This document shows positions 53,638-61,176 of a DNA stretch of 64,000 nucleotides, piece after piece. Numbering within the stretch: position 1 is the stretch's first letter; each line of letters begins with the position of its first letter. Source of the DNA: Mycolicibacterium flavescens (lineage in GTDB: Bacteria; Actinomycetota; Actinomycetes; Mycobacteriales; Mycobacteriaceae). The notes beneath the pieces were generated by a model that saw only the letters and a program-made list of their open reading frames with translations, did no database searches and was not told where the DNA came from. The stretch lies in NCBI RefSeq assembly GCF_001722335.1, contig NZ_MIHA01000001.1, positions 248,001 through 312,000 on the forward strand. Reading direction: 5' to 3'. The translations under genes and the position numbers were made by a program.

Positions 53638-54822
53638 ATGACGCAGCGATACGACCTGGTCATCGCAGGTGGCGGGCCTTCCGGCTCGGCAGCAGCGTGG
53701 CAGGCCGCGCAGACCGGCGCCAAGGTAGTGGTCCTGGACAAGGCCGAATTCCCCCGGGCCAAGCCCTGCGGCGACGGGCTGACCGCCCGCGCGGTCAGCT
53801 ATCTGCAGAAGATGGGGCTGGCCGACGAGGTCGCCACCTACCACCGGGTGAATCGCGTGACGGTCTTCAGCCCGAGCGAGTGGGAACTGTCGTTCCCGAA
53901 GCGCCCCGGCATGCCTGATCACGGGCACACCGTCAGCCGCGAACGCCTTGACACCACCCTCCTCAAGCACGCCGAGTCCGCCGGCGCCGAGGTGCGTCAG
54001 GGCGCCGAGGTGTCCGGGCCGATCCTGGAGAACGGCCGCGTCGTGGGGGTCACGCTCAAGAGCGGCGAGAAGGTCTACGGCGATGCGGTGATCGCCGCCG
54101 ACGGCGCCTACTCCCCCATCAAGCGCGCGCTGAAGATCGACTCGGAATACAACGGCTACTCGGCGATCGCGATCCGCTCGGAGATGGCGGCCAACCGGCC
54201 GGACTCCGACAGCCTCGACATCTATCTCAAGCTCGTCTTCGAAGGTGACCAGTTGCCGGGCTACGGCTGGGTGTTCCCGATGGGCGACGGCATCTTCAAC
54301 ATCGGGCTCGGCTACGTCAACAGCTACAAGAATTGGCAGTCGATCAACGCCACCCAGTTCCTCGGCGACTTCCTGCGCACACTGCCGCGCGAGTGGAACC
54401 TGCCGCCGATCGAGGAACTGAAGAAGAACAAGAGTGTGCGCGCCTGGCGGCTGCCGATGGGCTTCACCGCCTGGCCGCCGTGGCGTCCGGGCGTGCTGTT
54501 CACCGGCGACTCGCTGGGCGCCGGCAAGCCGGCCTCCGGGGCGGGCATCTCCAAGGCGCTCGAATCCGGTTTGGCCGCAGGCGAATGCGCGATCGCGGCG
54601 CTGCAGAACGGCGGCCCCGACGACTTCACCAACTACGCCCAGCGCATGGAGGCGGCGTGGGGCCGGGAGTATCGGCGCGGCCGCTACATGCACAAGTTGA
54701 TCGGTCAGCCCAAGCTCGCCAACGCCGGTGTCAAGCTGATCGACAACGCCGCGTTCCGCGACCGGATGCTCAAGGCGCTCTACAAGAAGGCCCAGGGCCC
54801 GCAGCACACCATCAAGAAGTAG
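53638..54822 (+). CDS. Geranylgeranyl reductase family FAD oxidoreductase
   Basis: 394 aa. FAD Rossmann VIAGGGPSGSAAAWQAAQ, the CGDG motif PRAKPCGDGLTARAVSYLQK, the DG motif VIAADGAYSPIKRALK and the family block YGWVFPMGDGIFNIGLGYVN identify a GGR/MenJ-type enzyme that saturates isoprenoid chains. The third FAD motif, normally GDAA-x-NPxxGEGI, is GDSLGAGKPASGAGIS, unlike MenJ (Rv0561c). Good start at ATG 53638. Not in H37Rv at this place; likely a second reductase with another isoprenoid substrate. Confidence 0.87.
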   Translation: MTQRYDLVIAGGGPSGSAAAWQAAQTGAKVVVLDKAEFPRAKPCGDGLTARAVSYLQKMGLADEVATYHRVNRVTVFSPSEWELSFPKRPGMPDHGHTVSRERLDTTLLKHAESAGAEVRQGAEVSGPILENGRVVGVTLKSGEKVYGDAVIAADGAYSPIKRALKIDSEYNGYSAIAIRSEMAANRPDSDSLDIYLKLVFEGDQLPGYGWVFPMGDGIFNIGLGYVNSYKNWQSINATQFLGDFLRTLPREWNLPPIEELKKNKSVRAWRLPMGFTAWPPWRPGVLFTGDSLGAGKPASGAGISKALESGLAAGECAIAALQNGGPDDFTNYAQRMEAAWGREYRRGRYMHKLIGQPKLANAGVKLIDNAAFRDRMLKALYKKAQGPQHTIKK

Positions 54823-54879: not shown

Positions 54880-55218
54880 CTACTTGGCGACGACCGTCAG
54901 CAACACCGCCGAATCCTCGAGCGCAGCAAGGCTGTGCCGCTCCTCGGGGATCGGCAGGTAGTCGCCGGCCGCCCCTTCGACCGCCCCACTGGGCGCGTCG
55001 AGGCGCACGCGGCCCCGCAGCACCAACAGCGTTGCCTCGCCGGGGCTTTCGTGATCATCGAGGCCGTGGTCGGCGGCCAGCGCCAGCACGGTCTGGCGCA
55101 GCGTCTTGCCGCTGCCGCCGAACACGCTGCGCGCCGACCGGCCCGCCGAGGCGGCCTTGGCGGCGGTGATCAGCTCGTCGGCCAGCTGGTGCAGCGACAA
55201 TGCGGTGGACGTGGTCAT
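54880..55218 (-). CDS. Small cupin-domain protein
   Basis: 112 aa. N-terminal helix (about 1-50, LSLHQLADELITAAKAASAG) and a single cupin barrel: LAADHGLDDHESPGEATLLV (motif 1, with His-Asp-His-Glu) and GAAGDYLPIPEERHSLAALE (motif 2 His). It likely binds a metal. Last gene of the operon starting at 58666, 25 bp after the winged-helix regulator; small cupins beside such regulators often bind small anions or metal. Function not assignable. Confidence 0.82.
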   Translation of the reverse strand: MTTSTALSLHQLADELITAAKAASAGRSARSVFGGSGKTLRQTVLALAADHGLDDHESPGEATLLVLRGRVRLDAPSGAVEGAAGDYLPIPEERHSLAALEDSAVLLTVVAK

Positions 55219-55243
55219 GAAATCTCCTTTTCTGCCCCGACGG

Positions 55244-55918
55244 TCAACGTTCGGGGCGCAATACCAATCCGACCTCGCACGAACCGCCGTGCGGGTCCGG
55301 CGTCACCGACGCCTGATACTTCGCGCCGACCGCGTCGGCGTTGCAGTCGATCACTTCCTGGATCAGCCCCTGCTGGATCCCCCGCACGACCTCCGGCGCC
55401 GACGCCGCGACCTGCGCCAGCGGGCAGGTGCAGATCTGCACCGTCACCTCGCCGAACGAGTTGAACACCGAGCGCACCTGGAAGCCGAGTTCGTTGAGCG
55501 TGGCCACCACCATGTCGGCGATCGTCGGCTCGGAACGCGGCCGCGCCAGCCGGACCCGGCGCGCCAGATCCGCACCGATACGCACCGCGCGCTGCTCCCG
55601 CTCCTGCGGTGTGCCGCCCAGATGCGTCGCGAACAGCGCGACGATGTCGGCGTAGTCGAGCCGCGGCGCGACCTCATAAGTCACCCGCGGCCGGCCCGCG
55701 CGACCGGCCCTGGCCGTGTGGCCGCGCCGCACCACGCCCTGCTCCTCGAGCGTGGCCAGGTGGAACCGCGCCGTCGTGATGTGGATCTGCAGCGCGTCGG
55801 CGACCTGTTGGGCGTCGACGGCGGCCGTCGCGTTCTGCAGCAGGTTCAGCACTTTCCGGCGCTGCTGGCCGACGGCCCGCTCCGAGGGCGCGTCGACGTC
55901 ATGTCGCGGCACTGACAT
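55244..55918 (-). CDS. Winged-helix regulator with four-cysteine C-terminal domain (SufR/ArsR-like)
   Basis: 224 aa. HTH about 18-85: RRKVLNLLQNATAAVDAQQV, TTARFHLATLEEQGVVRR and a basic wing GRAGRPRVTYEV. The C-terminal part has four cysteines at 163, 165, 192 and 214 (ICTCPLAQVA, IDCNADAVG, GGSCEVGLV), reminiscent of Fe-S-binding SufR-type regulators but with its own spacing (C-x1-C-x26-C-x21-C). I infer a metal- or cluster-based redox/NO sensor. ATG 55918, 12 bp after the methyltransferase. The natural target is the palindrome at 58680-58705. Confidence 0.82.
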   Translation of the reverse strand: MSVPRHDVDAPSERAVGQQRRKVLNLLQNATAAVDAQQVADALQIHITTARFHLATLEEQGVVRRGHTARAGRAGRPRVTYEVAPRLDYADIVALFATHLGGTPQEREQRAVRIGADLARRVRLARPRSEPTIADMVVATLNELGFQVRSVFNSFGEVTVQICTCPLAQVAASAPEVVRGIQQGLIQEVIDCNADAVGAKYQASVTPDPHGGSCEVGLVLRPER

Positions 55919-55930
55919 GACCCGAGTCTG

Positions 55931-56734
55931 TCACGACTCCGGCACGACGCCGACCAGCGCGACCGCGGTCAGCGTGTGCCGATACCGGTGGAACGTCTTG
56001 CGCATCCCGATGACCCGTTTGCGCGCGGCCGGTCGGCGGATCAGGTTTCCGACGATCCGCAACGCGCCGAGCGGTCCCTCGTCGGCCAACACGCGCGCCG
56101 GGTTGAGCAGCGCCATCTTCGCGTGGTCGACGGTGTCCACGGTGAACCCGGCGTCGGTCAGCAGCGCCGCCCACTCCGCTGTGGTCAGCGGCCGGGCGTT
56201 GACCTTGATCGCACGCGACATGTCGCGGCGGATTTCATCCTTGGTGTCCTGCGCAATGTCGTCGGGCGCGAGGCCCAGCTCGTGGATCGCGTAGCGCCCG
56301 CCCGGCCGCAGCACCCGGAACGCCTCGGCGACGATCGCGCGTTTGTCCTTGTCGCCTTGCATGGTCAGCATCGCCTCGCCGATCACCACGTCGGCGCTGT
56401 CCGACGCCAGCCCGGTCTCGGCGGCGTTGGCGACCACGACTTTCCCGTTCACGGGTGCGACGATCTTGCGCACCGCCTCACCGGCCGCCGCGGTGTCGTC
56501 GACACCGACGTAGGAACGCGGATGCTGCGCGACGATGTCGGTCGCGGTGCGGCCCAGGCCGGGGCCGAGTTCGACGACGTCGGCACCGGTGATCCCGGCC
56601 GCACCGAGCAGTCGGCTGGTCAGTTCGAGTCCGCCGGGGCGCAGCACCCGCTTGCCCAGCCGGGCCAGCAGCCAGTGTCCGGGAAGATCTGCGTCGGGCC
56701 GCTGCGCCAGCGGAAGTGCCTCTCTATCAGTCAT
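55931..56734 (-). CDS. Class I SAM-dependent methyltransferase
   Basis: 267 aa. Motif I VVELGPGLGRTATDIVA (about 54-70), AAETGLASDSADVVIGEAML (motif II/post) and FRVLRPGGRYAIHELGL (motif III). The C-terminal part (AEWAALLTDAGFTVDTVDH on) is family-typical, with a basic hydrophobic tail RKTFHRYRHTLTAVALVGVV. ATG 56734 overlaps the permease stop (ATGA). Fourth gene of the operon. It could methylate a small molecule or quinone; no substrate motif is visible. Confidence 0.85.
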   Translation of the reverse strand: MTDREALPLAQRPDADLPGHWLLARLGKRVLRPGGLELTSRLLGAAGITGADVVELGPGLGRTATDIVAQHPRSYVGVDDTAAAGEAVRKIVAPVNGKVVVANAAETGLASDSADVVIGEAMLTMQGDKDKRAIVAEAFRVLRPGGRYAIHELGLAPDDIAQDTKDEIRRDMSRAIKVNARPLTTAEWAALLTDAGFTVDTVDHAKMALLNPARVLADEGPLGALRIVGNLIRRPAARKRVIGMRKTFHRYRHTLTAVALVGVVPES

Positions 56735-57510
56735 TTTCGAACCGTCCTTTCGACAGCGGCGATCGCGATGATCGCCGTGAACACTGAGCATGCGTACACC
56801 AGCGCGGCGTTGGGACCCCACGGCGGAGTCAGCACGCTGTCCTGACCGGTGCCGTACACCGCGTTCAGGAGCGGCAGAAAGCGTTGCAGCGTCGCCCCGC
56901 TGGGCAGATAACCGGCCGCGCTCTCCACCACGAACGCCCACAACAGGATCGCGCCCACCGCGCCGAGCGGCGACCGGACCAGCGCGCCCACCCCGACACC
57001 GGCCCCGGCGGCGAAGAACGCCAGCAGCGGGACCGACCACAACAGTCGCACACCGACGTCGTCGCCGATCGACACCGGTCCATAGACCGTAGGTGCGATG
57101 ACCGGCAGACCGATGAGCACGACGGCCACGGTGGCCGCGGCGACGGCGGCGCCCACCACGCCGTAGAACAGCCACCGACCGGTCAGCACAGGCCAGGGCC
57201 GCGGCATCGCCAACCGGACGTACTCACCTGCGTGGTAACGGTTTTCGGCTGTCTGACCGTCTGCGCCTGCGACGGCGACCATCGCAACGGTGATCGTGAT
57301 GACCCAGTAGGCGGCATTCGAGGTGGTCACCTGCAGCACCGAGATCTGGCCCGGGATGCGCGCAAACGACTCCGCGATGAGCGCGACGGCGAACGTGATC
57401 GCCACCGGGATCCCAGCGGCGGCGGGGATCTCGACGGTCCACAGCCTGCTGCACCCGCCGGTGCGGATCTGTTCGGCGCGTACGTTGCGCGCTACGGCGC
57501 CGGCGATCAT
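56731..57510 (-). CDS. ABC-2-type permease
   Basis: 259 aa with about six hydrophobic helices: IPVAITFAVALIAESFARIP, NAAYWVITITVAMVAVAGAD, FYGVVGAAVAAATVAVVLIG, LLWSVPLLAFFAAGAGVGVG, and GAVGAILLWAFVVESAAGYL among them. ATG 57510 overlaps the ATPase stop, so the two form one transporter. The layout is that of NosY/CcmB-like ABC-2 permeases. Substrate unknown. Confidence 0.82.
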   Translation of the reverse strand: MIAGAVARNVRAEQIRTGGCSRLWTVEIPAAAGIPVAITFAVALIAESFARIPGQISVLQVTTSNAAYWVITITVAMVAVAGADGQTAENRYHAGEYVRLAMPRPWPVLTGRWLFYGVVGAAVAAATVAVVLIGLPVIAPTVYGPVSIGDDVGVRLLWSVPLLAFFAAGAGVGVGALVRSPLGAVGAILLWAFVVESAAGYLPSGATLQRFLPLLNAVYGTGQDSVLTPPWGPNAALVYACSVFTAIIAIAAVERTVRK

Positions 57511-58202
57511 GCGCACTCCAGCAGCGTCGACTCGAGCCATTCGCGGGTGTCGGCACCTGCCGGGGTGAGTTGTCCGAGGTCGCCGGTGGCGTGCACGCGC
57601 CCGTCGCGCAACAACACGATGTGGTCGGCGGTCAGCGCCACTTCGCCGAGCAGATGGGTGGCGACGACGACGGTGCGGCCACGGTCGGCGAGCTCGCGGA
57701 CCAGCGACCGGAACCAGACGATGCCGGGCACGTCGAGACCGTTGAGCGGTTCGTCGAACAGCACCGTGGGCGGGTCGGCCAGCAGTGTGCCCGCGACGGC
57801 CACCCGCTGACGCAGACCCAGCGAGAGCCCGGCGATGCGCTGGGCCCGGTGGTCGTTGAGACCGGTCTCGGCGAGCACCTCGTCGATGCGGGCGTCGCCG
57901 ATCCCGGAAAGCGCTGCGAGCCAGCGCAGATGGCGGTGCACCGTGTGACCCGGGTTCATGGCGGCCGGTCCCAGATGGAAGCCCGACAGCAGCGGGTCCG
58001 CACCGGCCGGCGTCCCGCACACCGTGACCGTCCCCGTGTCGGGCCGGGTCAGTCCGCCGAGGATCCGCAGCAGCGTGGTCTTGCCCGCGCCGTTGAGACC
58101 GAGCAGCGCGGTCACCGCCCCGGCCGGGAAACTCACCGTGACGCCGTCGACGGCGCGGCGGCGACCGAAGGACTTGGTCACCCCGACGGCGTCGATCGTC
58201 AT
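57507..58202 (-). CDS. ABC transporter ATP-binding protein
   Basis: 231 aa. Walker A LLGLNGAGKTTLLRILGG (about 33-50), signature IAGLSLGLRQRVAVAGTL (LSLG instead of LSGG, as in drug/Cu ABC-2 exporters), Walker B TVLFDEPLNGLDVPG, H-loop VVVATHLLGE. ATG 58202 overlaps the stop of the secreted-protein gene (ATGA). Partner of the permease at 56731. Confidence 0.9.
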   Translation of the reverse strand: MTIDAVGVTKSFGRRRAVDGVTVSFPAGAVTALLGLNGAGKTTLLRILGGLTRPDTGTVTVCGTPAGADPLLSGFHLGPAAMNPGHTVHRHLRWLAALSGIGDARIDEVLAETGLNDHRAQRIAGLSLGLRQRVAVAGTLLADPPTVLFDEPLNGLDVPGIVWFRSLVRELADRGRTVVVATHLLGEVALTADHIVLLRDGRVHATGDLGQLTPAGADTREWLESTLLECA

Positions 58203-58666
58203 TGGAAGTTGCACGGGATCGGCAGGCCGAGGGTCTTGATGCCGTTGCACAGCGACTTGCTCGCCAGCTTCCACCGGCCGTCGATGCGGCGCCACTCGGC
58301 CTCGACCTGGACGGTCGGGGCGCCCTGCCGGCTGGCGTTGATGACCGCGGTGTGCCGGTCGCCGTCGTGGGTCTCCGGGCCGGTCACCACGCTGGATCCG
58401 CGGGGCGGCCGGAAGAACCCGATCCGGTAGACCATCTTCGGCACGACGACCGCGCGGCTGCCGCCCTCGAGCTGAGCGGCCTTGACCGAATCCGGGGCCG
58501 GCGTGCCGACCAGCAGCCGGATCTGCGCGTCGAGTTCGGCCAGCGACGGCACCTCCGAAGTGATGGCGAACTCCTGGACCGGATCGGGTTGGGCCTGCGC
58601 CGCGGGCGCAAAACCGGAGGATGCCACGGCGATTGTCGCCATCACTACGCACAGACGCCTGAACAT
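58199..58666 (-). CDS. Secreted MTB12/CFP-2-like protein
   Basis: 155 aa. Signal peptide VVMATIAVASSGFAPAAQAQ, then a domain resembling low-molecular-weight antigen MTB12 (NTF2-like): PSLAELDAQIRLLVGTPAPD, SVKAAQLEGGSRAVVVPKM, VEAEWRRIDGRWKLASKS. Two C-terminal cysteines (SLCNGIK, PIPCNFQ) may bond. First gene of the operon; AGGAG lies 9 bp upstream of ATG 58666 and the palindromic promoter is directly behind it. As the exported member it could present or collect what the ABC system moves. Confidence 0.78.
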   Translation of the reverse strand: MFRRLCVVMATIAVASSGFAPAAQAQPDPVQEFAITSEVPSLAELDAQIRLLVGTPAPDSVKAAQLEGGSRAVVVPKMVYRIGFFRPPRGSSVVTGPETHDGDRHTAVINASRQGAPTVQVEAEWRRIDGRWKLASKSLCNGIKTLGLPIPCNFQ

Positions 58667-58679
58667 GACCCGGTCTCCT

Positions 58680-58731
58680 ATTTAGAGGAAATCTTTCCGC
58701 TAAATGTAGACCGCCCGACCGAGTGAGGCAA
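58680..58731 (-). promoter_or_regulatory. Promoter of the 58.7-54.9 kb operon with a 26-bp operator palindrome
   Basis: Reading the minus strand: -35 TTGCCT (58731-58726), 17-bp spacer, -10 TACATT (58708-58703). Over the -10 and start lies a palindrome (58680-58705) with arms ATTTAG-n-GGAAA and TTTCC-n-CTAAAT around a 2-bp centre; all 22 arm bases match, and the one unmatched pair lies between them. A partly IdeR-like sequence (58724-58742, 13 of 19) overlaps the -35. The operator would be for the operon's own winged-helix regulator; inferred. Confidence 0.6.
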
Positions 58732-58800
58732 GGCTTACCTCTGATAGCAAGCGTGCAGTTGGCGCCGCAGAAAACGGGCTCTGCTGTCTAGACTCCGCGT

Positions 58801-61176
58801 ATGGGTGGCGCGGTCAGGGGGGCGACGGTCGCGCGCACGTCGGTCACCGCGGTGACCTTCCTGCTCCTCATCTACCTCGCCGTGATCGCCCTCTATCCGG
58901 AACTGCGTCAACGTGTTCCGAGCGCGGTGCGGTGGTTCGGCGAACCGGTCCCCGTGTCGGTGCCCTCGATCGCGGTCGTCGTGCTGCTGTTGCTGATCGT
59001 CGGGATCGGGATCTTTCGCGCGCACGGCAACCGGGAGACCGGCGCGCCGCTCGCCGTGGTCGCCGGGCTGGCGACCATCAGCCTGGTGCTGAGCCTGGCC
59101 TCGTTCTGGCGGTGCCACGACTCGTCGCACCCGTTCTTTTTCGCGCCGCTGATCGGCGCCGTGGGAGTCGTCAAGGGCGGCACCGGCGCGCTCGAAACCG
59201 AGGCGGGCGCATGTCCGTCGCCGGTGCCGGTGGCGCTGGAGATCGCCCGCCTGTCCGCGCTCGCCGCGATCTTCCTCAGCGTGATCGGCGTGGCCGCCGC
59301 ACTGTTCCGCAGCCGGGTGGACCGGTTGCGCGTCCGCTTCGCCCGGGCCGTGACGGTGGCGGTGGGCCTCGACGACGACAGCCTGTCGATGGTCGAGGCC
59401 GTCGCCGACACCCTCGGACGTCGCAGCACCCTGGTCGTGGTCACCTCGATACCGGACCGGCACTGTGTGCACGCCGCGCGCACCCGCGGCGCCCGCGTGC
59501 TCACCGCCGACCTCAGCCACCCCGAGACTCTGCCGGCGCTGCAGTTGTGGCGCCGACTCGACCGGCTCTACCTGCTGTCGGCCGACCCGTCGACCAACCT
59601 GCGGCGCCTCACGGCGATCAGCAGTGCGATCCCGGAAACGCATGGGCGTCAACGGATTCCCCTCATCATGCGGATCGACGACCCGTGGCAGGCCATGGCG
59701 TGGCGGGCCCAGCACTTCGGCGGCACCGACACCCGGTGGGCCGCCGACGCGGTCGGCAAGTACGAGGTGACCGCACGGCGCCTGCTCGACCGGATCGTCG
59801 CCGACCGCAGCTCCCGGCTGCTGGTGTGCGGATCGTCGGCGCTGACGCTGGCGTTGTGCGCGGACCTGGCACAGCGTCGCCTGGAGCGCGACTACCACGC
59901 CGGCGAGACCGAAGCCTCGCTCCCCCAGCTGATTCTGGTCGCTGTCAACGCCGACGAATACCGCCGCGACCACGAGCACTGCCTACGACAGGCCGGCTTT
60001 CCGCCGGACCGCCTCACCGTCGAGGTCGTCGCCGCCGAGCCCTCGGTCGCGACGGTGCTGGATCTCGTCGAGGGCGGTGACCCGGCCACGACGGCGGTGA
60101 TCCTGGTCGACTCGGCCGCACTCGATCCGACCACCGCGACACGCCTGGCCGCGCGGCTGCCTGCGACCAGCATCTGGGCGTGGGACCCGAAGGCTGTCGG
60201 CTCCGACGAGCGCGCCGCGCTGGTCGGCAGGTTGCGCACGTTCCGGCTCAGCATGGATCTGCCGCAGGGCCAGGCGCACGACGCGTGGGAGCGCGCCGCT
60301 CGGCTCATCCACGAGCGCTACGCCTCCGCCGTCGGGCATCGCACCGCCGCGAGCGCGCCGTGGCAGGACCTCGACGAGTTCTACCGCGGGTCCAACCGGC
60401 GGCAGGTCGAGACGACCCTGTGGATCGTCGAGGCGATCGGCGGGCACACCTGGAACACGTTCGGCGCCGAGTCCGACGAAGTATCGATCGCCGAGCTGCG
60501 GGGACTGGAACCGCTGGAACAGTTGCGCCGGCTGGGTTTCGACCGCGACCGGGCGCTCGCCATGGCGCGCGCCGAGCACGAGGACTGGTGCCGCTACTAC
60601 CGCAAGCACGGATGGCGGCACGGAAAGGTGCGCGACGACGCCCGCAAGATCCACGACAAGTTGGTCGACTGGAGCGTCGTCGAATCCGAACCGGCGCTGC
60701 TGTCGAAGTCACTGAGCAGTCTGGCGGCATCCCTGACGGCCATGCGCGAGCTCGGTTACCGGTCTCGACCGGTCACCGATGCCGCGTCGAACGGCATTCC
60801 GTGGCAACGCTTTCGACGCACCGGGACCGTGATAGCCGAAAAGCGTGACGAGCCGTGGACGTGGACCGCGTCGTCCGGGGATTCGATGAAGGCCAGTGCG
60901 GGCGACTGGGCGGTGCGCGACCCCGACGGCGGACAATGGTGGTCGGTGCGCGACGACATTTTCCGGTCGCGCTACGAACACCTGGGCGGCGACCGGTGGC
61001 GCCGGTCCGGTTTCGCCGCGGCCCGCCCCGCCCGCGACGGTGAGGTGATCGACACGCTCGAGGGTCCGGTAACCGCGTCGGCCGGCGACTGGGTGGTCCG
61101 CGGTGAGCACGACGAACAGTGGCCGGTGCCTGCCGATCAGTTCGAACGTCGCTACCAGGGCCCGGTTTCGGATTGA
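58801..61176 (+). CDS. Membrane protein with nucleotide-binding-like domains, RyR domain and C-terminal repeats
   Basis: 791 aa, unlike any standard mycobacterial family I know. Four hydrophobic helices (about 12-32, 51-72, 80-105, 140-168) are followed by two Rossmann/RCK-like regions (about 180-290, VAVGLDDDSLSMVEAVADTL; about 340-470, LLVCGSSALTLALCADLAQR). At about 588-660 is a RyR-type domain: HEDWCRYYRKHGWRHGKVRD, then ARKIHDKLVDW and AMRELGYRS. The end has two copies of an AGDWAV/AGDWVV-type repeat (about 697-727 and 758-788). It looks like a ligand-gated channel or sensor. ATG 58801, divergent from the ABC operon. Neighbouring remnant at 61178. Confidence 0.8.
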   Translation: MGGAVRGATVARTSVTAVTFLLLIYLAVIALYPELRQRVPSAVRWFGEPVPVSVPSIAVVVLLLLIVGIGIFRAHGNRETGAPLAVVAGLATISLVLSLASFWRCHDSSHPFFFAPLIGAVGVVKGGTGALETEAGACPSPVPVALEIARLSALAAIFLSVIGVAAALFRSRVDRLRVRFARAVTVAVGLDDDSLSMVEAVADTLGRRSTLVVVTSIPDRHCVHAARTRGARVLTADLSHPETLPALQLWRRLDRLYLLSADPSTNLRRLTAISSAIPETHGRQRIPLIMRIDDPWQAMAWRAQHFGGTDTRWAADAVGKYEVTARRLLDRIVADRSSRLLVCGSSALTLALCADLAQRRLERDYHAGETEASLPQLILVAVNADEYRRDHEHCLRQAGFPPDRLTVEVVAAEPSVATVLDLVEGGDPATTAVILVDSAALDPTTATRLAARLPATSIWAWDPKAVGSDERAALVGRLRTFRLSMDLPQGQAHDAWERAARLIHERYASAVGHRTAASAPWQDLDEFYRGSNRRQVETTLWIVEAIGGHTWNTFGAESDEVSIAELRGLEPLEQLRRLGFDRDRALAMARAEHEDWCRYYRKHGWRHGKVRDDARKIHDKLVDWSVVESEPALLSKSLSSLAASLTAMRELGYRSRPVTDAASNGIPWQRFRRTGTVIAEKRDEPWTWTASSGDSMKASAGDWAVRDPDGGQWWSVRDDIFRSRYEHLGGDRWRRSGFAAARPARDGEVIDTLEGPVTASAGDWVVRGEHDEQWPVPADQFERRYQGPVSD

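What the first reader, a model, noticed from the sequence alone, without database searches (positions are those of the whole stretch)
54880..58666. Compact operon of secreted protein, ABC exporter, methyltransferase, four-Cys regulator and cupin
Six same-strand genes are stacked with 4-bp overlaps for four of the joints and gaps of 12 and 25 bp for the rest, so they act together. None of the six is in the H37Rv order here. The combination (MTB12-like secreted protein, ABC-2 transporter, small-molecule-type methyltransferase, SufR-like regulator with C163, C165, C192, C214, cupin) suggests a redox- or NO-responsive export/modification system. No described system with this content comes to mind.
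Basis: partly seen in the sequence, partly recalled or inferred. Interest (0 to 1): 0.72.

Follow-up and report, generated by a model that had tools for sequence, protein, structure and literature searches.

The report
Iron-starvation export operon in mycobacteria
A six-gene mycobacterial operon, probably switched on when iron runs short and guarded by an unusual cysteine-based sensor, looks like an undescribed system that chemically modifies a small molecule and carries it out of the cell.

Summary
The six genes are real, co-directional and conserved together. Corrections: three joints overlap by 4 bp, not four, and the regulator has three conserved cysteines (C163, C165, C214), not four; C192 is not conserved. 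A DtxR/IdeR-type box covers the -35 element and is the best match in the 64-kb window to a profile of published Corynebacterium DtxR motifs. In 36 loci scanned, all 22 strong box matches lie at the start of this system's methyltransferase or secreted-protein gene. The methyltransferase is homologous to C. glutamicum cg2311, reported as raised in a dtxR mutant. Secreted protein, ATPase and permease travel together in 30 of 30 loci fetched. The secreted protein has the MTB12/NTF2-like fold. The regulator has the fold told for ArnR, a [4Fe-4S], NO-sensitive regulator, but one ligand cysteine has moved: the middle one is gone and a new one sits two residues before the first; one relative has all four. 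A private palindrome between -10 and the ribosome-binding site is its likely operator. Best reading: iron- and Fe-S-gated modification and export of a small molecule, substrate unknown. No regulation or metal binding has been tested in mycobacteria.

The parts
58199..58666 (-). Secreted MTB12-like protein (155 aa), NTF2-like fold; signal peptide about residues 1-25 (my reading, no tool)
   Evidence: PF26580 in 120 of 120 listed relatives; AlphaFold model pLDDT 78.6, top PDB match 8z9b MTB12
57507..58202 (-). ABC transporter ATPase (231 aa)
   Evidence: PF00005 79.4 bits; 4-bp overlap with the previous gene
56731..57510 (-). ABC-2-type permease (259 aa)
   Evidence: PF12698 13.2 bits, below the 31.6 cut-off; beside ATPase and secreted gene in 30 of 30 loci fetched
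55931..56734 (-). Class I SAM-dependent methyltransferase (267 aa), homologue of C. glutamicum cg2311
   Evidence: PF08241 46.4 bits; 51% identity over 261 of 267 residues to the gene at the published cg2311 DtxR motif
55244..55918 (-). wHTH regulator with C-terminal TRAPPC3-like domain and conserved C163, C165, C214 (224 aa)
54880..55218 (-). Small cupin (112 aa)
   Evidence: Cupin_2 15.7 bits, below cut-off; relatives recur beside other regulators of this family
58724..58742 (-). DtxR/IdeR-type iron box (below 14 of 19 to the consensus; 13 by my count), overlapping the -35 element
   Evidence: rank 1 of the 64-kb window with a profile of published DtxR motifs (14.8 bits, next 10.2; 14.7, next 10.6 with cg2311's own motif left out)
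58726..58731 (-). -35-like TTGCCT
   Evidence: 17 bp to the -10 hexamer in 13 of 13 promoter rows chosen for carrying the exact box, 12 distinct loci; not called by the strict consensus scan
58703..58708 (-). -10-like TACATT
58680..58705 (-). Element B: 26-bp imperfect palindrome (85% symmetric), candidate operator of the operon's own regulator
   Evidence: 7 hits in 13 genomes, all at this promoter, 0 hits of the reversed control
58675..58679 (-). Ribosome-binding site AGGAG before the first gene
   Evidence: sequence

Best explanation
The operon is an iron-repressed unit for modifying and exporting a small molecule. SHOWN BY COMPUTATION HERE: conservation of the gene set; an IdeR/DtxR-like box across the -35 element; a second, private palindrome between -10 and the ribosome-binding site; constant grouping of secreted protein, ATPase and permease in the loci fetched; a regulator with the ArnR-type fold but a rearranged cysteine set. 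REPORTED BY OTHERS: the homologous methyltransferase gene cg2311 of C. glutamicum is raised in a dtxR mutant and carries a DtxR motif. INFERRED: when iron is plentiful IdeR blocks the promoter; when iron falls IdeR leaves. The operon's own regulator, probably holding an Fe-S cluster on C163/C165/C214, sits on the palindrome and gives a second check that tracks Fe-S status or NO. Once both release, the methyltransferase (with the cupin) modifies a small, probably hydrophobic molecule, the ABC-2 pump moves it across the membrane, and the NTF2-like secreted protein receives or carries it outside. The substrate is unknown.
Against: No experiment here or in the passages I read shows regulation in a mycobacterium. 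The window's own box is below 14/19 to the consensus. 8 of 33 loci with the methyltransferase lack a 10-bit box, among them L048 of the close-regulator group and the three loci with the more distant mycobacterial methyltransferase (L040, L041, L096); exporter-only loci L119-L123 show none >=14/19 in the roughly 300 bp visible. In 5 of 13 close-regulator genomes the exporter is not beside the pair, and 5 of 38 permease genomes lack the methyltransferase, so the parts are separable. No biosynthetic core enzyme is in the operon. L077's regulator has only two of the three cysteines. Cysteine distances were not measured (no coordinates). Most loci compared are related, so the counts are not independent.
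Confidence: 0.55

Rival explanations
1. One reading: a redox- or NO-responsive export/modification system whose main signal is read by the operon's own Fe-S regulator, with iron secondary or irrelevant.
For: Regulator fold like that told for NO-sensitive ArnR; other regulators of the family lie beside truncated-haemoglobin-like genes (L052, L054, L093; weak, see full report), ferredoxins and near a hemerythrin gene; private palindrome at the promoter.
Against: The iron box is kept in Corynebacterium-type loci where no regulator gene is found beside the operon (L084, L085), and the methyltransferase homologue cg2311 is reported as DtxR-controlled.
Confidence: 0.2
2. The box at -35 belongs to the operon's own regulator, not to IdeR; the resemblance to the DtxR consensus is incidental.
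For: AGGTAAGSCTTGCCT occurs only 12 times in 78 genomes, 8 of them at this operon, which is rather private for a global regulator.
Against: Four orthologous promoters replace it by a TTAGGCTAACC-type box, closer to the DtxR consensus; lineages without an adjacent regulator keep a box; published DtxR motifs such as that of cg1930 carry a similar GGTAA...CTTGCCT pattern; a second distinct private element exists for the local regulator.
Confidence: 0.12
3. The pump is a generic stress or drug efflux system that happens to lie next to a methyltransferase and regulator.
For: The ATPase matches 192 NCBIfam families; none of the 25 shown reaches its cut-off. Exporter and methyltransferase are apart in 12 of 38 permease genomes: 7 on other contigs or far away, 5 without the methyltransferase.
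Against: Secreted partner beside it in 30 of 30 loci fetched; adjacency to the methyltransferase in 26 of 38 across the family; iron box.
Confidence: 0.1
4. The cysteine set binds zinc or senses thiol oxidation directly rather than holding an Fe-S cluster.
For: TRAPPC3 structures 7YH2/7YH3 are told to be zinc-bound (PMC12343034 passage); only three Cys and no identified fourth ligand.
Against: ArnR (same fold by its AlphaFold 3 model) and Rv1460, each with three key Cys, are reported to bind Fe-S clusters.
Confidence: 0.2

Closest known systems
ArnR of Corynebacterium ([4Fe-4S], NO-sensitive repressor of nar/hmp; PMC12343034, passages)
   Same: N-terminal wHTH plus C-terminal TRAPPC3-like sensory domain; three conserved Cys near the C-terminus; first-to-middle spacing of 14 fits C165 and position 179
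   Different: Where ArnR has C193 this family has R179 (119 of 120); a new Cys, C163, two residues before the first; last Cys 49 rather than 44 residues after the first; ArnR itself was not aligned here; different targets
SufR / Rv1460 (PMC6034842, passages)
   Same: wHTH regulator with three functionally needed C-terminal Cys; Fe-S repressor
   Different: Rv1460 needs C203, C216, C244; the middle one is lost here. 19.5 bits against the 178.8-bit cut-off of TIGR02702. I did not search the neighbourhood for suf genes
DtxR regulon: C. glutamicum cg2311 (PMC1382209) and C. diphtheriae DIP0762-DIP0761 methyltransferase-cupin pair (PMC13001254)
   Same: Homologous methyltransferase with a DtxR motif on its start (cg2311, tested here); a methyltransferase plus cupin pair repressed by iron and DtxR (DIP0762/0761, homology not tested)
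   Different: The mycobacterial operon adds exporter, secreted protein and regulator; no function is given for these genes in the passages I read
MTB12 secreted antigen family, PF26580, PDB 8z9b
   Same: PF26580 domain and NTF2-like fold
   Different: 21% identity to 8z9b; here it is a constant neighbour of an ABC exporter

Membership tests
ArnR/SufR-type Fe-S regulators | N-terminal winged helix-turn-helix | tested here: met
   wHTH matches over about residues 14-87; HTH_IclR above its cut-off, HTH_20 just below
ArnR/SufR-type Fe-S regulators | C-terminal TRAPPC3/Bet3-like domain | tested here: met
ArnR/SufR-type Fe-S regulators | Three Cys in the order C-x12/13-C-x27/29-C | tested here: not met
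   Window has C163-x1-C165-x48-C214; the middle Cys is R179
ArnR/SufR-type Fe-S regulators | Binds an Fe-S cluster | not testable with these tools
   needs purified protein
SufR (TIGR02702) | Score above curated cut-off | tested here: not met
   19.5 against 178.8 bits
DtxR/IdeR regulon | DtxR-type box at the promoter | tested here: met
   rank 1 in 64 kb with profiles of published motifs; kept in most orthologues
DtxR/IdeR regulon | Iron- and IdeR-dependent expression of this operon | not testable with these tools
   only the homologue cg2311 has reported data
MTB12 family | PF26580 domain and NTF2-like fold | tested here: met
   PF26580 precomputed for the window's own protein P0241 and its relatives; not found by my own Pfam scan; fold
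MTB12 equivalog (NF053528) | Score above curated cut-off | tested here: not met
   no match listed for the window protein; a relative in L077 scores 19.9 against 125
DVU_1556 methyltransferase (NF045667) | Score above curated cut-off | tested here: not met
   76.5 against 155 bits
ABC-2 exporter | ABC ATPase plus ABC-2 membrane subunit | tested here: inconclusive
   ATPase met (PF00005); permease PF12698 13.2 bits, below the 31.6 cut-off

The most novel reading that the evidence does not exclude
A new class of Fe-S regulator in which the cluster ligand set has been rebuilt by moving one cysteine (C-x13-C-x29-C to C-x1-C-x48-C) through a four-cysteine intermediate (still seen in L093). Together with IdeR it gates an undescribed iron-starvation pathway that methylates a small metabolite and exports it through an ABC pump with a dedicated MTB12-type carrier, kept in several lineages of the mycobacterial family.
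Probability: 0.4. Interest if true: 0.78.

Novelty: new variant of a known kind. Interest (0 to 1): 0.62.

Why it matters
It turns an unannotated gene cluster, and a DtxR target for which the passages I read give no function (cg2311), into a testable iron-starvation pathway. It offers a natural example of a metal-cluster ligand set apparently being rebuilt while fold and gene linkage persist. It also gives the MTB12-like secreted proteins, whose family includes a tuberculosis antigen, a concrete partner: an ABC exporter.

Tried and rejected
Four-Cys cluster in the window: rejected, C192 is variable. SufR, DVU_1556 and MTB12 equivalog membership by curated cut-offs: not met. Arsenite methylation (weak ArsM hits): the window's methyltransferase contains no cysteine (sequence), so I dropped it. 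A link to the convergent geranylgeranyl-reductase-like gene: it is near the operon in L001-L005 too, but nothing ties it to the operon. Strict sigma-70 scan: no promoter found; the -35/-10 pair rests on comparison alone. Sequence search of solved structures: nothing useful for regulator, cupin or secreted protein, one weak hit for the methyltransferase. Truncated haemoglobins: I named these genes at sight; Pfam and NCBIfam list nothing for them, and L052's protein matches truncated haemoglobins only weakly in solved structures (8 of 8 hits, best E 6e-4; L093's protein none), so the label is tentative and 'group III' is recalled. Phylum-wide methyltransferase search: 9 of 296 genomes at E<=1e-50, two of them (G001, G086) already in the family set; two of the nine loci have a site >=14/19, one inside the gene and one about 100 bp upstream, so the iron link is not shown outside the family. 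Paper searches listed no description of this operon in open-licence PubMed Central; subscription papers are mostly not held. What I saw of papers: found passages of PMC9491836, PMC12327846, PMC13001254, PMC6173762, PMC6034842, PMC12343034, PMC524172 and PMC2170428; passages and the whole of section 7 of PMC1382209; a find without result in PMC6701010; the rest as search listings. The DtxR consensus was typed from recall and later found printed in PMC1382209. The profile used 26 of the 40 motifs of that table, cg2311's included; one search repeats it without that one. The first count (19 of 29 loci against 6 of 293) left out L001 and the methyltransferases of L040, L041 and L096, and used starts from my own simple gene caller, which sets some starts wrong; one search uses starts placed by homology and all 33 loci with the methyltransferase. 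In the 'either gene' count a locus may take the better of two upstream regions, a control only one; by single genes it is 17 of 33 (methyltransferase) and 10 of 14 (secreted). The four-Cys intermediate rests on one sequence.
Full report
WHAT IS THERE. Six minus-strand genes run from 58666 to 54880: secreted protein, ABC ATPase, ABC-2-type permease, methyltransferase, regulator, cupin. Pfam supports the ATPase and methyltransferase clearly, the cupin and permease only weakly. The secreted protein has no hit in my Pfam scan, but PF26580 is precomputed for all 120 listed relatives (136 found), and its AlphaFold model (pLDDT 78.6) matches crystal structure 8z9b, MTB12, best (TM 0.67 by target length, 0.52 by query, E 2e-3), followed by weaker matches that include several NTF2-like and ketosteroid-isomerase folds.

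CONSERVATION. A scan with the regulator found 5 loci in named mycobacteria; all 5 carry all six genes in the same order, the cupin of L003 in two reading frames. In 78 Mycobacterium genomes drawn by the tool, the close regulator (60% identity or more) occurs in 13; the methyltransferase lies within 2 kb in 13 of 13, the permease beside them in 8 of 13, and the cupin beside the regulator in 7 of 13. Of 39 genomes with a methyltransferase match at E<=1e-30, 13 have the close regulator beside it and 19 of the other 26 have another regulator of the same family within 4.5 kb; 7 have neither. In the wider family (251 genomes) the methyltransferase occurs in 71 and the permease in 47 at E<=1e-15, 38 at E<=1e-39; of these 38, 26 have it within 6 kb of the methyltransferase (farthest 3.4 kb), 7 elsewhere in the genome, and 5 lack the methyltransferase. 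In 30 of 30 permease loci fetched (the 30 best of 61 matches), secreted protein, ATPase and permease are neighbours. A second lineage (L077-L081) carries an AhpD-like protein, a second methyltransferase, methyltransferase, cupin, regulator, secreted protein, ATPase and permease; the Corynebacterium-type loci L084 and L085 carry methyltransferase, secreted protein, ATPase and permease, with no regulator match in the 11 kb. Ten other methyltransferase loci of that fetch (L082, L083, L086-L092 without L090, L094, L095) show no exporter match of this kind beside it.

IRON BOX. Upstream of the first gene the sequence AGGTAAGSCTTGCCT overlaps a -35-like TTGCCT, with 17 bp to a -10-like hexamer in 13 of 13 promoter rows that have the exact box (12 distinct loci, since L005 and L063 are the same place). 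The exact box occurs 12 times in 78 genomes, 8 of them at this operon and 4 elsewhere; the reversed control occurs twice. Four further promoters (L045, L046, L047, L049) carry a TTAGGCTAACC-type box instead, and L048 has none, so 12 of 13 close-regulator genomes have a box. Scanning 36 loci (507,738 bases) for the DtxR consensus at 14 of 19 or better gave 22 sites in 20 loci. With gene starts placed by homology, 21 lie 0-172 bp upstream of the methyltransferase or the secreted-protein gene and one (L082) overlaps the inferred start by 6 bases; in L046 the site also lies before a divergent gene. Three rounds of base shuffles gave a mean of 3.0 sites for the whole set. The window's own box is below 14 of 19 and so not among the 22. 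A profile of motifs from PMC1382209 makes the window's box the best site of 64 kb: 14.8 bits, next 10.2 (26 motifs), or 14.7, next 10.6 with cg2311's own motif left out. In one search, 25 of 33 loci with the methyltransferase have a site of 10 bits or more before the methyltransferase or the secreted gene, against 8 of 335 other upstream regions; by single genes, 17 of 33 methyltransferases and 10 of 14 secreted genes. Relatedness is not corrected for. The eight without are L040, L041, L048, L086, L087, L090, L092 and L096. The cg2311 motif occurs in 1 of 242 genomes of the Corynebacterium-type genus, on the start of a gene 51% identical to the window's methyltransferase over 261 of 267 residues. 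Table 1 of that paper gives cg2311 a microarray value of +3.0 and a real-time RT-PCR relative expression of +37 in the dtxR mutant. In C. diphtheriae a methyltransferase-cupin pair, DIP0762-DIP0761, is listed as iron- and DtxR-repressed (PMC13001254, table passages); I did not test its homology.

SECOND ELEMENT. Between -10 and the ribosome-binding site lies a 26-bp imperfect palindrome (85% symmetric). A pattern for it with up to 3 mismatches hits 7 times in the 13 close-regulator genomes, each time at this promoter, with no control hits; the other six promoters show a more diverged version by eye, including L048, which has no iron box. It tracks the close regulator and is private to the operon, as expected of a local operator; binding is untested.

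HOW IT MOST LIKELY WORKS. IdeR with iron blocks the -35. The local sensor, probably with an Fe-S cluster, sits over the start site. Iron loss, and probably cluster damage, release both. The methyltransferase and cupin act on a small molecule; the pump and the NTF2-like protein export and carry it. The promoter logic is supported by comparison, the cluster by fold and cysteine conservation only, and the substrate and direction of transport are inference.

WHAT IS NEW. Each protein belongs to a known kind, and iron control of the methyltransferase's homologue is in print. I found no description of the exporter-methyltransferase-regulator unit in the searches named under Tried and rejected, and the moved cysteine is a variant not told for ArnR or SufR in the passages I read.

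Noticed in passing
L041 6088-7885, L042 6332-8181, L043 7415-9254, L096 3964-5761: A second recurring mycobacterial module: Fer4 ferredoxin, regulator of the same family with canonical cysteines, a small membrane protein without Pfam hit (FLEAPLKF motif), and a cupin 51-58% identical to the window's, with a nitronate-monooxygenase-like gene next to it in L042, L043 and L096. The methyltransferase is divergent nearby in L040 and L096 and convergent in L041.
   Followed up: partly
L052 7408-8560; L054 6621-7976; L093 3562-4720: Regulators of this family beside (in L054 one gene away from) truncated-haemoglobin-like genes; weak match to solved truncated haemoglobins for L052 (best E 6e-4), none in Pfam or NCBIfam. 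It may mark an NO-linked branch.
   Followed up: partly
L044 2622-4355; L052 8562-10358: Cytochrome oxidase subunit I genes lie next to a ferredoxin-regulator-cupin module (L044, PF00115) and a regulator-haemoglobin-like pair (L052, same cluster).
   Followed up: no
L050 (G022) about 1240-1368: A 43-residue match to the window-type regulator (58% identity, residues 180-222) with no methyltransferase match in that genome at E<=1e-30, between two genes that flank intact methyltransferase-regulator pairs in L045 and L049: the pair appears to decay in some lineages.
   Followed up: no
L077-L081: In this lineage the operon starts with an AhpD-like protein and a second, UbiE-like methyltransferase, and the secreted-protein gene has its own iron box in L079 and L080.
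   Followed up: partly
window 53638-54822 (+): A geranylgeranyl-reductase-like gene (PF22578) converges on the operon and lies near it in L001-L005 too, 92-98% identical.
   Followed up: no
window 58801-61176 (+): Divergent 791-aa protein with a RyR domain (PF02026); found next to the operon in L002 but not in L003-L005 (L001 starts too close to tell).
   Followed up: no
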